A DNA stretch of 64,000 nucleotides, taken from the NCBI RefSeq assembly GCF_027587195.1, contig NZ_JAPDDP010000011.1, positions 1-64,000 of the forward strand, written 5' to 3'. A model generated the notes under the pieces. That model worked only from the letters and a program-made list of their open reading frames with translations. It was not told the DNA's origin and searched no databases. This stretch comes from Solirubrobacter phytolaccae (lineage in GTDB: Bacteria; Actinomycetota; Thermoleophilia; Solirubrobacterales; Solirubrobacteraceae). This document shows, in pieces, positions 25,570 to 30,657 of this stretch (positions are counted from its first letter, which is position 1; every line of letters begins with the position of its first letter). The translations under genes were made by a program, and so were the position numbers.

Positions 25570-26202
25570 CTACGCGTACGCCGGGGCGCCGTTGGCCTCG
25601 GCGATGCCCGCGATCTCCTGCGAGACCCGGTCGAACTCCTCGTCGGAGAGCACGGGCGTGCCCTCGAACGGGAGGTCACGCGTGATCTCCAGCCACGAGC
25701 GGCATCCGCCGTAGTCGTCGCGGACGCGCACGGTGACGGGCCGCGGAATGCGGTACGTGCGCAGCAGCAGGACATGGAGCGGATGGCGGCGCTTCCACGC
25801 CAGGCGCTTCTCGGCGTAGTCGGACGTCCAGACGTGGAACGGCGTCAGACCGTCCAGCGCGCGGCGGTCGGTGACCGTCCACGCCCCGGCGACCTCGGCC
25901 CAGGCCCTGATCCGCACGCGGTCGGGCTGGGGGATGCCACCGTCCATCGTCAGCGCCCGGGCGGGCGGCTCGCCCTCGGGCCACACGCCCTCTTCCAGGG
26001 CGCGTCGCAACTCGGGCTGATGGGACTCACGCACCAGATCGTTGCGCTGGTGATCGAACGTCGGGTACAGGAAGAACCGGTCGTGCTCGAGGGCAAAGTG
26101 CTTGCCCGCCTCGCGAATGCCGCCCTTGCGCAAGGTGAGCAGTTGCTCACCCTCGGCGAGAGCGCGCACGGTGACGGCCCATTCCTTGAAAGCGATCGGC
26201 AT
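25570..26202 (-). CDS. DUF1802 family protein
   Basis: The 210-residue protein begins MPIAFKEWAVTVRALAEGEQ, followed by LLTLRKGGIREAGKHFALEH and RFFLYPTFDHQRNDLVRESH, the DUF1802 signature. DUF1802 proteins are small soluble proteins of unknown function found in actinobacteria, cyanobacteria and archaea. A 102-nt untranslated leader with its own near-consensus promoter precedes the gene and can fold into alternative structures (see leader entry), unlike the leaderless genes around it. An upstream in-frame extension to GTG 26310 would read through that structured region and is rejected. Confidence 0.85.
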   Translation of the reverse strand: MPIAFKEWAVTVRALAEGEQLLTLRKGGIREAGKHFALEHDRFFLYPTFDHQRNDLVRESHQPELRRALEEGVWPEGEPPARALTMDGGIPQPDRVRIRAWAEVAGAWTVTDRRALDGLTPFHVWTSDYAEKRLAWKRRHPLHVLLLRTYRIPRPVTVRVRDDYGGCRSWLEITRDLPFEGTPVLSDEEFDRVSQEIAGIAEANGAPAYA

Positions 26203-26304
26203 AAACCTGGTTGAAAAGAGGGTTGTAAGACCTACGGGTTCCCTGCACAGCGAGCGTGCGCCACGACCCTGCCCGAAGCTGTGACGGGGAAACCTCCCGT
26301 AAGG
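26203..26304 (-). promoter_or_regulatory. Structured 5' leader of the DUF1802 gene
   Basis: Transcription from the promoter at 26311-26339 would give a leader of about 102 nt. CUUACGGG (26303 to 26296) can pair with CCCGUAGG (26238 to 26231), including one G-U pair, and just inside this helix UUCCC pairs with GGGAA. The competing local fold is GGGA-GGUU-UCCC (26298 to 26287). A third hairpin, GCAC/GUGC (26259 to 26245), lies between. Two mutually exclusive folds directly upstream of a start codon are typical of regulatory RNAs. I do not recognise a known riboswitch class. Confidence 0.45.
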
Positions 26305-26310
26305 CGTCAC

Positions 26311-26339
26311 ATACTATGCACAAGGCCACGAAATCTCAA
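26311..26339 (-). promoter_or_regulatory. Sigma70-type promoter of the DUF1802 leader
   Basis: On the minus strand TTGAGA (26339-26334), a 17-bp spacer and TAGTAT (26316-26311) give a strong match within an unusually AT-rich stretch. The predicted start site is near 26304. Confidence 0.6.
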
Positions 26340-26412
26340 AACCTCGCTGCAAATTCACAGTTTTTCGCGGAAATGTCCATTTTCTGGCATAGAGCGCGAA
26401 CGCGCCAAGTTG

Positions 26413-27291
26413 TTACAAACGTGCACCGGTGAGGCCTTCGATCACCTCGAGCACGGCGGCGAAGTCCTGGTCGCCCAGACCCTTCCCGATGCCGGCGCCG
26501 TAGAGCTCCGCGGCGAGCCCCGCGAACGGGAACGCGCCACCGGCGGTGCGGGCCTCGGCGAGGCACAGCTGCACGTCTTTGAGCATGTGCGCGAGCTTGA
26601 ACAGCGGCGTGAAGTCGTGCTCGAGCATCGGCTTGCCTTTCAGCGCGCGCATCGTCGAATCGCTCGAACCGCCGTCCATCGTCTCCAGCAGCGCGTCGAC
26701 GTTCACCCCCGCCTGACGCGCCAGCACGAGGCCTTGGGCGAGCGTCGCGCAGTTGACCGCGGTGATCGCCTGGGTGATCACCTTCACGGCCTGGCCCTGC
26801 CCGGCCTCCCCGCACAGGACGATCTTCTCGCCCATGATCTCGAACAGTGGGCGGGCGCGCTCGATGTCGTCCGGCGCACCCCCGACCATGATCGTCAGCG
26901 TGCCCGTGCGGGCCTTGGGGGATGAGCCCGTGACCGGCGCGTCGACGAACGCGTGGCCCTCGGCGTGGCAGCGCTCGGCCAGCTCACGCGCCGTGCCCGG
27001 CGCGATCGTCGACATATCGACGAACAGCGTGCCCGGCTTGGCGCCCTCGAGCGCCTGATCGATCATGTCCGTGACCTGGTCGCCGTCGACGACCATCGTG
27101 ATCACGACGTCGGAGACCTCCGCGACCGCCTTGGGCGAGTCGACCACGGTCCCGCCGTGCTCGGCCGCCCACGCCTCCGCCTTCTCCCGCGTGCGGTTGA
27201 ACACGGTCAGCTCGACGCCCGCCTTGGCCAGGTTCATGGCCTGCAGCGAGCCCATGATCCCGAGCCCGATGAACCCCACCTTCTCAGCCAT
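26413..27291 (-). CDS. Beta-hydroxyacid dehydrogenase (GarR/3-hydroxyisobutyrate dehydrogenase family)
   Basis: The 292-residue protein has the NAD(P)-binding FIGLGIMG at 7-14, the substrate-binding DAPVTGS at 117-123 and the catalytic Lys170 in GQAVKVITQ. Arg33 after beta-2 (VFNRTREKAEA) suggests NADPH use. The usual Asn three residues after the catalytic Lys is Thr here, so specificity may differ from GarR or MmsB. It starts 8 bp within the end of the hydantoinase B gene, making it part of the hyuA-hyuB operon, and would reduce or oxidise a short-chain 3-hydroxy acid product of that pathway; the physiological substrate is unknown. Confidence 0.88.
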   Translation of the reverse strand: MAEKVGFIGLGIMGSLQAMNLAKAGVELTVFNRTREKAEAWAAEHGGTVVDSPKAVAEVSDVVITMVVDGDQVTDMIDQALEGAKPGTLFVDMSTIAPGTARELAERCHAEGHAFVDAPVTGSSPKARTGTLTIMVGGAPDDIERARPLFEIMGEKIVLCGEAGQGQAVKVITQAITAVNCATLAQGLVLARQAGVNVDALLETMDGGSSDSTMRALKGKPMLEHDFTPLFKLAHMLKDVQLCLAEARTAGGAFPFAGLAAELYGAGIGKGLGDQDFAAVLEVIEGLTGARL

Positions 27292-28744
27292 AGCCGCCTC
27301 CTCCCGGTGTCTCGATCCGTAGTCGTTGTCCCGGCTGGAGCGTGCCGCGCGCCTTGGCCGGCTGCTCCTCGCCGTCGATCAGGTTCCTGCCCTTCGCGCC
27401 CGGCTCACCACCATTGGCGCCCGGCGGCGCGTGCCGGCGGCGCTCGGTCAGCAGCGAGTAGTCCATCGCCGCGAGCGCCTCGACCTCGCGCACGATCCCG
27501 TCGCCGCCACGGTGCGCTCCCTTACCGCCGGAGTCGCGACGGATCGCGTACTCGACGACCTTGAGCGGGAACTCCAGCTCCAGCGCCTCGACCGGCGTGT
27601 TCAGCGTGTTCGACATCGCCACGTGCACGCCGCTCGGGCCGTCGGCGTCCGCGCACGCGCCCTGGCCGCCGCCGAGCGTCTCGTAGTAGGTGAAGTCGTC
27701 GTTGCCGAGCGTGAGGTTGTTCATCGTGCCCTGGCCGAGGGCGTACCCGAACGCCTTCAGGACCAGGTCTGCGACCCGCGAGGACGTCTCCACGTTGCCG
27801 GCGACGACGGCCGCGGGCGGGTTGGCGTTGAGGAGGCTGCCCTTCGGTGCGGTGACCGTCACGGGCCGCATCGCGCCGCTGGAGGGCGGGATGTCGGGGT
27901 CGGTGAGCACGCGCACCGCGAACCAGCAGGCGGAGACCGTGACCGCCAGCGGGCAGTTGAGGTTGCCCTCGTGCTGGTCGGCGGAGCCGGTGAAGTCCAG
28001 GTGCAGCGCGTCGCCGGCGATCGTCGCCTTGAGCTGGAGCTGGAGATCCTCGTCGGCCGCTTCTAGCACGTCGGTGGCCGTGTACTCGCCGTCGTCGAGG
28101 GCCTCGATCGCCGCGCGGGTGCGTCGCTCCGCGTAGTCGATCGTCGCCGCCATCGCCTCGGCCAGCGGCATCCGGTCGTGCAGCTCCTCCAGGCGCGCGA
28201 CCCCCGTGCGGTTCGCGGCGAGCTGCGCGCGCAGGTCGGCCCGGCGTTGCGCGGGCTGGCGCATCTGGGAGGCGAGCCGCTCGATCGCGTCCTCGTCCAG
28301 GCGCTGCGGCTCGATCACCACGCCCTCGTCGGCGAGCGTCTTCGAGTCGGCGGGCATCGAGCCGGGGGTGGGGCCGCCGACGTCGGCGTGGTGCGCGCGG
28401 TTGGCGGCGAACCCGATGAGGGTGCCGTCGGCGAACGCCGGCGTGATCACCGTGATGTCCGGCAGGTGCGTACCGCCGGAGTAGGGGTCGTTGAGGACCC
28501 AGCTCACGCTTGGCTCGTGGTCGTGCTCCGCGACGGCGGCGACGGCGGCGGGCATCGCGCCCAGGTGCACCGGGATGTGCTCGGCCTGCATCACGAGCTC
28601 GCCGTACGGGTCGAACAGCGCGCACGAGGCGTCGCGGCGCTCCTTGATGTTCGCGCTGTGGCTCGCGCGGATGAGCACGGCGCCCATCTCCTCGCAGGTG
28701 GCGCGGAGGGCACCGGACGCGACGCGCAGCGTCACCGGGTCCAT
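27284..28744 (-). CDS. hyuB: Hydantoinase B / oxoprolinase-type subunit
   Basis: The 486-residue protein belongs to the HyuB family: [20 protein letters not shown] start, [39 protein letters not shown], and the C-terminal GGxGG-type end with [12 protein letters not shown]. With HyuA it forms an ATP-dependent amide-ring opening or carboxylase enzyme (N-methylhydantoinase, 5-oxoprolinase, acetone or acetophenone carboxylase). Length of about 490 is shorter than acetone carboxylase alpha (about 770) and fits hydantoinase or acetophenone carboxylase-type subunits. Genes hyuA, hyuB and the dehydrogenase overlap by 13 and 8 bp. Confidence 0.92.
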
Positions 28745-30657
28745 TCGATCCTCACGGTGCCGCTGGGCAGGACCTCGCCGGACCAGCCGGGGGGAACGGC
28801 GAGCGTGGACTCGCGCAGCTCGATCACGGCCGGCCCTTCGATGCGCTCGCCCGGCTCCGGCTCGCCCTTGATGATCGTCGTCTCGCCGTAGAGCGTGGTG
28901 CGCGTGCCGCGTTCCGCGCCTTCCGCGGCGCGACCGACCGCGTCGGGGTCGATCTCCGGCCCGGGCGTCGTCGCAGTGGCCCGCAACGTCACGAGCTCAA
29001 CCTCAGCTTCAGGGTCACGGTAGCCGTACGCGTCCTCGTGGGCGGCGTGGAAATCCTCCTCCAGATGGTCGGAGAGCGGCACGCTGAGCTCGAACGCCTG
29101 ACCGCGGTAGCGCAGCTCGGCGACGACGCGCACGTCGGCCTCGGGATCGCCCAGCTCGGCACGTGCGCGCTCTGTGAGCTCGTCCGCCTCGGTCGTCAGC
29201 TCGCCGGCTTTGAGCAGCACGGAGCGCTGGGCGTCCCGGCGGCGCTCGGAGACGACGAGGCCGAGCGCGGCGAGCACGCCCGACGCGCGCGGGCAGAGGA
29301 TCTTCGTGATGCCGAGCTCCTCGGCGATCGCGGCCGCGTGCAGGCCTCCCGCTCCGCCGAAGGCCATCAGCGCGAGCGAGCGCGGATCGACGCCGCGCTC
29401 GACCGTCATCACCCGCAGGGCGCGGACCATCTCGGCGTTGGCGACCTTGATGATCCCTTCGGCGGTCTCCTGCCGGCTGAGGTCGAGCTGCTCGGCAAGC
29501 GTGTCGACGGCGCGCTCGGCCGCTTCGCGATCCAGCTCGATGCCGCCCGCGATCCCGCCGAGCAGCCCGAGCAGCAGGTTCGCATCGGTGACGGTGGGCT
29601 CCTCGCCGCCGTGCCCGTACGCGGCGGGGCCAGGGCGCGCGCCGGCGCTGCGCGGGCCGACCCGGAGCGCTCCACCCGCGTCCCGCCAGGCGATCGAGCC
29701 GCCGCCGGCGCCGACGGTGTGGATGTCCAGCATCGGCAGCGCGACCGGCCGCCCGCCGACCTCGCGCCCGCTCGCCTCGCGGACCTCGCCGTCGAGCACG
29801 ACGCAGACGTCGCAGCTCGTGCCGCCCATGTCGAAGCACAGCGTGTCGGGCTCGCCCGCGGCCTGCGCGGCCCACGCTGCCCCCGCCGCGCCGCCGGCCG
29901 GCCCGGAGAGCACGGTCAGCACCGCGTGGTCGGCGGCCTGCTCGAGGCTGGCGAGGCCGCCGCTGGACTGCATCACGCTCGGCTCCGGCAGCCCGGCCTC
30001 CTGCGCCCGCGTGGTGAGGTTGCGCAGGTAGGCGGCGAGCAGAGGGGAGAGCGCCGCGTCGAGCTCGGTCGTCGCCGCGCGCTCGTACTCGCGGAAGGTG
30101 CCGACGACCTGGTGGCTCAGAGAGACGTGGACGTCGTGGGCTTCGAGCGCCGCTCCGAGCTGCTGCTCGTGCTCGGGGTGCCGATAGGCGTGCAGGAGGC
30201 AGACCGCGACCGACTCAGGCTCGAGGGCGAGGATCGCCTGGACGGCGGCGTCGACGTCCAGCGCCGTCTCCGGGCCGTCGGGCGTCATCCGCTCCGTGGC
30301 GCCGACCCGGAGCTCCGGTGGCACCAGCGGGGCCGGACGGGCCTTGCAGAGGCGGTACAGGTCGGCTCGGGCCTGGCGCGCGAGCTCGATGATGTCCTCG
30401 AAGCCCTTCGTCGCCACGAACACAGTCTTCGCGCCCTCGCCCTCGAGCAGCGCGTTCGTCGCCGCCGTGGTGCCGTGGGCGAACTCCTGGACGCCTTGCG
30501 CGTCCTCGTTCGCTCGTTCCAGCACCGCCCGGACGGCGTTGAGCACGCCCTCGGACTGGTCCTCGGGCGTGGTCGGCGCCTTGGCCGTCCACAGTCGGCC
30601 GTCGACCGCCAAGACGGCGTCGGTGAAGGTCCCGCCCACGTCCACGCCCAGGAGCAT
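28732..30657 (-). CDS. hyuA: Hydantoinase A / oxoprolinase-type ATP-dependent subunit
   Basis: The 641-residue protein has the HyuA N-terminal ATPase core ([19 protein letters not shown]), [17 protein letters not shown], the second phosphate region [15 protein letters not shown] and [18 protein letters not shown]. It should bind ATP and activate the substrate carbonyl in complex with HyuB. The gene leads the operon. Minus-strand TAGCGT ends 9 bp before the ATG, suggesting a near-leaderless promoter between this gene and the Cys-rich gene upstream. The nature of the substrate (hydantoin, oxoproline or ketone) cannot be decided from the sequence. Confidence 0.93.

What the first reader, a model, noticed from the sequence alone, without database searches (positions are those of the whole stretch)
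26203..26339. Leadered, foldable RNA upstream of DUF1802: candidate riboswitch-like control
A near-consensus promoter (TTGAGA-N17-TAGTAT) lies 102 nt upstream of the start codon in a genome where many genes look leaderless. The leader can form either a local GGGA/UCCC hairpin or a long-range CUUACGGG/CCCGUAGG helix extended by UUCCC/GGGAA; the two share bases. The region upstream is unusually AT-rich. DUF1802 has no known function, so a ligand-sensing or protein-binding leader would be informative about it.
Basis: partly seen in the sequence, partly recalled or inferred. Interest (0 to 1): 0.65.

Follow-up and report, generated by a model that had tools for sequence, protein, structure and literature searches.

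The report
Conserved hairpin at DUF1802 mRNA start
In soil bacteria of the order Solirubrobacterales, the messenger RNA of an uncharacterised gene (DUF1802) almost always begins with a short RNA hairpin whose two arms have changed together during evolution, so the folded leader is real, but nothing shows that it is a switch or that it senses a molecule.

Summary
The promoter and leader are real and conserved. TTGAGA-N17-TAGTAT (26339-26311, minus strand) is the only sigma70-like site in 3 kb around the gene (0.1 expected). Homologous promoters precede DUF1802 in about 100 of 111 scored non-redundant Solirubrobacterales loci, usually 57-113 nt before the ATG. The leader starts with a roughly 40-nt hairpin of differing sequence in each lineage. 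Without any alignment, a leader's 5' arm pairs with its own 3' arm better than with other species' arms (0 of 20,000 permutations; z about 8). The signal is confined to nt 0-20 x 36-56 after the -10. No competing helix and no start-codon sequestration covary. There is no Rfam match, and a covariance model did not find held-out leaders, so no riboswitch-type sequence core is evident. Outside the order, and in one family within it, DUF1802 genes lack this leader and most look leaderless. DUF1802 is predicted to have an ASCH/PUA-like fold (pLDDT 90, Z about 10). Most likely: a 5'-terminal hairpin that protects the mRNA or sets its expression. Autoregulation by the encoded protein is the most interesting open alternative. 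A ligand riboswitch is unlikely.

The parts
25570..26202 (-). DUF1802 gene (PF08819), 210 aa, ATG at 26202; predicted ASCH/PUA-like fold
   Evidence: Pfam E 6e-57; AF2 pLDDT 90; fold matches to ASCH proteins
26334..26339 (-). -35 element TTGAGA
   Evidence: only promoter-like hit in 3 kb; PWM conserved across the order
26311..26316 (-). -10 element TAGTAT, 17-nt spacer; start expected near 26304 (inferred)
   Evidence: pattern TTTGNNAT-N14-16-TANNAT occurs once in the 7.7-Mb genome
26337..26352 (-). upstream block TTGCAGCGAGGTTTTG abutting the -35; related T[TA]GCAG in 39 of 103 relatives; role unknown
26231..26304 (-). structured part of the leader: position of the 5'-terminal hairpin (longer here than in other genera)
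   Evidence: alignment-free arm covariation at this position in relatives; MFE of this leader; genus alone inconclusive
26296..26303 (-).
26231..26238 (-).
26287..26298 (-). alternative local hairpin GGGAGGUUUCCC, favoured only in short transcripts; not conserved as a competing helix
26203..26230 (-). C/U-rich, G-poor, largely unpaired linker to the ATG, without a clear Shine-Dalgarno

Best explanation
The region is a sigma70-type promoter followed by an mRNA leader whose first 40-50 nt form a hairpin starting within a few nucleotides of the 5' end; an open C/U-rich linker then leads to the ATG. Shown by computation: the promoter and the hairpin are conserved through most of Solirubrobacterales, the arms coevolve, the sequence does not persist, no second helix competes, and the start codon is not paired away. 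Inferred: the hairpin acts as a constitutive 5'-terminal structure that keeps 5'-end-dependent decay enzymes (RppH with RNase E/J) off the transcript and so sets a steady DUF1802 level, while ribosomes load on the open linker without a Shine-Dalgarno. It is a lineage-specific addition, because DUF1802 genes elsewhere lack it and most look leaderless.
For: Promoter found in about 100 leaders, -10 to ATG 57-113 nt in nearly all. Folding z-score has a sharp minimum (mean -1.04) in the 52 nt after the -10, near 0 upstream of the promoter and +0.4 to +0.5 (less structured than chance) over the linker. Own-arm pairing exceeds swapped arms by 7.9 SD in 82 leaders under 55% identical; other offsets from -180 to +130 give -2.6 to 3.0. 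The 2D scan shows a single helix, nt 0-20 x 36-56. A hand-chosen alignment gives covariation 0.282 against 0.143 shuffled and at most 0.12 slid. Allowing G.U raises the signal more than allowing A.C (7.9 vs 6.2), as expected of sense RNA. 30 other promoters of the same genome show no such hairpin (mean z -0.05; p = 6.6e-5). 5'-terminal structure is known to slow mRNA decay by blocking single-stranded 5' ends (PMC3997798).
Against: No transcript end has been mapped; the start is inferred from the -10. mRNA stability was not measured. The window's leader alone does not fold better than shuffles, and in Solirubrobacter the helix register is not resolved. Signal is weaker in the small families (f2 p = 0.026, f3 p = 0.08). 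A stabiliser need not be conserved in position for so long unless DUF1802 dosage matters, which is unknown.
Confidence: 0.5

Rival explanations
1. Autoregulation: the DUF1802 protein, with an ASCH/PUA-like RNA-binding fold, binds the leader hairpin of its own mRNA and represses translation or triggers decay.
For: AF2 model pLDDT 90, VIA Z 10.4 to EOLA1/CXorf40A, 10.2 to ZmASCH, 7.4 to YqfB; ZmASCH binds and cleaves single-stranded RNA (PMC5615036); the element is unique to this gene in the genome.
Against: No conserved loop or bulge sequence that a protein would read; the CM does not transfer between genera; the protein is well conserved where the leader is absent (family f4); ASCH motif GxKxxExR only partly kept.
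Confidence: 0.2
2. Translation element: the hairpin keeps the linker open and works with it as a standby/S1-type loading site in a gene that mostly lacks a Shine-Dalgarno.
For: Only 18 of 103 leaders have an SD-like 4-mer in the last 20 nt; linker 39% C, 15% G and less structured than chance.
Against: Many Thermoleophilaceae-type leaders have GGAGG after the hairpin and still keep the hairpin.
Confidence: 0.15
3. Transcription attenuation: the hairpin plus a T/C-rich or C-rich, G-poor stretch acts as a weak intrinsic or Rho-dependent terminator.
For: Some leaders have a GC hairpin followed by a T-rich stretch (for example L093, L024); C>G linker.
Against: Only 10 of 79 have 5 or more T in 8 nt after the stem; no terminator-like site in the window region; no antiterminator helix covaries.
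Confidence: 0.1
4. Ligand-sensing riboswitch with two exclusive helices.
For: Both helices can be drawn in the window and share bases.
Confidence: 0.04
5. DNA-level inverted repeat: an operator just downstream of the start, not an RNA fold.
For: Coevolving arms alone cannot separate DNA from RNA.
Against: Arms differ in sequence between lineages, enclose about 25-30 nt, and favour G.U over A.C on the sense strand.
Confidence: 0.04

Closest known systems
5'-terminal stabilising stem-loops (E. coli ompA, papA type)
   Same: Hairpin within a few nt of the inferred 5' end, sequence free to vary, start codon left open.
   Different: No stability data; order-wide conservation on one gene; no Shine-Dalgarno in most members.
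Riboswitches and other Rfam cis-regulatory leaders
   Same: A structured leader upstream of a single gene.
   Different: No Rfam match, no conserved sequence core evident, no covarying alternative helix.
Autoregulatory protein-binding leaders (ribosomal-protein type; RNase E rne 5' UTR)
   Same: The gene encodes a protein with a likely RNA-binding fold behind a structured leader.
   Different: No mimicry of another RNA and no conserved binding site found; binding untested.
ASCH / EOLA1 / YqfB (protein fold)
   Same: Predicted fold, Z 7-10 over 98-138 residues.
   Different: The GxKxxExR motif appears as G-E-Q-L-L-T-L-R: G and R kept, K and E replaced; an added C-terminal helix.

Membership tests
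Riboswitch | Conserved sequence and structure core across species | tested here: not met
   CM R1 built on 29 leaders found no held-out leader and not the window's leader; no Rfam match
Riboswitch | Mutually exclusive helices, both conserved | tested here: not met
   2D covariation scan shows one helix only
Riboswitch | Ligand binding changes expression | not testable with these tools
   needs in-line probing and reporter assays
5'-terminal stabilising stem-loop | Stem begins within a few nt of the transcript 5' end | tested here: inconclusive
   stem usually starts 6-10 nt after the -10, about +1 to +4 of the inferred start; start not mapped
5'-terminal stabilising stem-loop | Structure, not sequence, is what is conserved | tested here: met
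5'-terminal stabilising stem-loop | Lengthens mRNA half-life | not testable with these tools
   needs half-life measurement
ASCH superfamily (DUF1802 protein) | PUA-like beta-barrel fold | tested here: met
   AF2 pLDDT 90; Z 10.4 CXorf40A, 10.2 ZmASCH
ASCH superfamily (DUF1802 protein) | GxKxxExR cavity motif | tested here: not met
   G18 and R25 kept; K to Q, E to T; motif from PMC6803910; register placed by eye. Not filed as an ASCH member; only the fold is said to be ASCH/PUA-like
Intrinsic terminator/attenuator | GC hairpin followed by a U-run | tested here: not met
   10 of 79 leaders; none in the window region

The most novel reading that the evidence does not exclude
An ASCH/PUA-fold protein of unknown function controls its own mRNA by binding a coevolving 5' hairpin, a regulatory circuit gained in the ancestor of most Solirubrobacterales from a leaderless gene.
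Probability: 0.18. Interest if true: 0.65.

Novelty: new member of a known kind. Interest (0 to 1): 0.42.

Why it matters
It gives an order-wide structured 5' leader, supported by covariation, in a bacterial group with little RNA biology, on a gene family without assigned function. The contrast between leadered and leaderless homologues is a natural experiment on why an mRNA acquires a 5' hairpin. The predicted ASCH/PUA-like fold of DUF1802 turns 'function unknown' into a testable RNA-related hypothesis.

Tried and rejected
Rfam at gathering threshold on the window and on 18 relatives' loci, and at E up to 5 on the leader: nothing. A covariance model from 29 hairpins: no held-out leader found, so it is not a sequence family. 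Genus-level RNAalifold proposed GUGACGCCU/AGGG-U-CGU-G-GC, but nearly all its bases are invariant, so it is neither supported nor refuted. DUF1802 promoters as a regulon: pattern, upstream block and leader are each unique in the genome. Upstream gene as owner of the leader: rejected, the neighbour varies (3-hydroxyisobutyrate-dehydrogenase-like, HyuB or others) while the leader stays. In-frame GTG extension of the ORF (26310): rejected as a start, because leader length is not frame-conserved between congeners (107-109 nt). A control set of other promoters taken from the flanking loci gave only 1-2 sites, too few, so own-genome TTGACA promoters were used instead. Two literature searches gave nothing usable on Solirubrobacter leaders or Thermoleophilia start sites; one paper in the library mentions DUF1802 and it was not opened.

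Full report
Setting. The window is from a Solirubrobacter (Thermoleophilia, Solirubrobacterales): named relatives that encode the protein at 90-98% identity are Solirubrobacter species. The gene at 25570-26202 (-) is DUF1802 (PF08819, E 6e-57). The gene upstream, in the same direction, is a 3-hydroxyisobutyrate-dehydrogenase-like gene; the intergenic gap is 26203-26412.

The observation. The stretch from 26311 is the most AT-rich 73 bp of the window. The two helices can both be drawn. Taken alone, the leader folds no better than shuffled sequence (z -1.24), so the single-sequence case is weak.

Relatives. Searches gave DUF1802 in 58 of 61 relatives' genomes and 133 of 146 genomes of the family, and 80 named loci. 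From these, 113 non-redundant upstream regions were made; two were too short to score, leaving 111. A promoter model refined on them shows TTG at -35 and TAGAAT/TACAAT-like -10 hexamers, with 57-113 nt from -10 to ATG in nearly all. Eight regions without a convincing promoter were set aside, leaving 103; among the eight are members of family f4, where TATAAT-like hexamers lie 10-12 nt before the ATG. In a sample of genomes outside the order, other Thermoleophilia and several other actinobacterial families have no comparable leader and most look leaderless, and Rubrobacter-type genes have a short leader with a Shine-Dalgarno. The long structured leader is therefore specific to most, not all, Solirubrobacterales.

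Structure. Folding z-scores in 52-nt windows reach a sharp minimum directly after the -10 (mean -1.04), are close to zero upstream of the promoter and positive over the linker. They are negative again (about -0.8) over the start of the coding region, which is strongly conserved as protein. Thirty other promoters of the same genome do not show the hairpin (mean z -0.05, p = 6.6e-5). The strongest test needs no alignment: the 5' segment of each leader was paired with its own 3' segment and with those of other species. Own arms win by 7.9 SD in 82 leaders less than 55% identical, with 0 of 20,000 permutations reaching it; twelve other offsets gave -2.6 to 3.0. The two-dimensional version shows one helix, nt 0-20 with nt 36-56, and no covariation of either arm with the linker or start codon beyond z about 2. 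On a hand-chosen alignment of 29 hairpins the closing stem UCCYG/CRGGA changes between C-G and U-A in step (covariation 0.282 vs 0.143 shuffled; slid controls at most 0.12); these were picked for having such a stem, so this is illustration, not independent proof. G.U tolerance points to the sense RNA. By group the result is strong in family f1 without Solirubrobacter (0 of 20,000), modest in f2 (p = 0.026) and not significant in f3 (n = 6, p = 0.08).

The window itself. Its position agrees with the order-wide hairpin, in a longer form, but the exact pairing in this genus is unresolved.

No switch, no family. No second covarying helix was found, Rfam finds nothing, and a covariance model finds neither held-out leaders nor the window's leader. 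The promoter pattern, the upstream block TTGCAGNGANNTTTNG and the leader each occur once in the genome, so there is no sign of a regulon.

The protein. AlphaFold2 on 33 homologues gives pLDDT 90. The fold matches ASCH/PUA-like proteins: mouse CXorf40A Z 10.4, ZmASCH 10.2, TRIP4 9.1, YqfB 7.4. ZmASCH is a weak single-strand RNase and EOLA1 is proposed to bind RNA (PMC5615036, PMC6803910). In DUF1802 the ASCH motif keeps G and R but not K and E, so the catalytic chemistry of YqfB should not be assumed.

Mechanism. A 5'-terminal hairpin under selection for pairing but not for sequence, with an open linker, fits a protective or expression-setting 5' structure best; such structures block RppH and RNase E/J entry (PMC3997798). 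This function is inferred. Autoregulation by the ASCH-like protein is the main rival with real novelty. Caveats: transcript starts are inferred, leaders are phylogenetically related, promoter assignment was iterative, and no expression data exist.

Noticed in passing
L139-L157, L162, L163, L217, L218 (Rubrobacter-type DUF1802 upstream regions): A conserved block CATATAATC-N13-18-GCATTATACGAGAGGTG: two TATAAT-like -10 hexamers in inverted, back-to-back orientation between divergent genes, without clear -35 elements.
   Followed up: no
26337-26352: Block TTTGCAGGGA just upstream of the -35 in many relatives (T[TA]GCAG in 39 of 103), unique in the genome; could be an activator site or an UP-like element.
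   Followed up: partly
own genome, L175-L204: TTGACA-N16-18-TANNNT occurs 31 times against 1 in the backward control; about half of these promoters lie within 25 nt of a start codon, and several overlap palindromes that look like operators.
   Followed up: partly
DUF1802 coding starts in the leader set (L001-L137): The first 100 nt of DUF1802 coding sequence also folds better than shuffles (mean z about -0.8), perhaps only a result of codon and protein conservation.
   Followed up: no
26413-30657: Same-strand neighbours upstream: a 3-hydroxyisobutyrate-dehydrogenase-like gene and hydantoinase/oxoprolinase B and A homologues (best NCBIfam matches caprolactamase subunits, far below cut-off); HyuB- or HyuA-like genes lie upstream of DUF1802 in many relatives.
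   Followed up: partly
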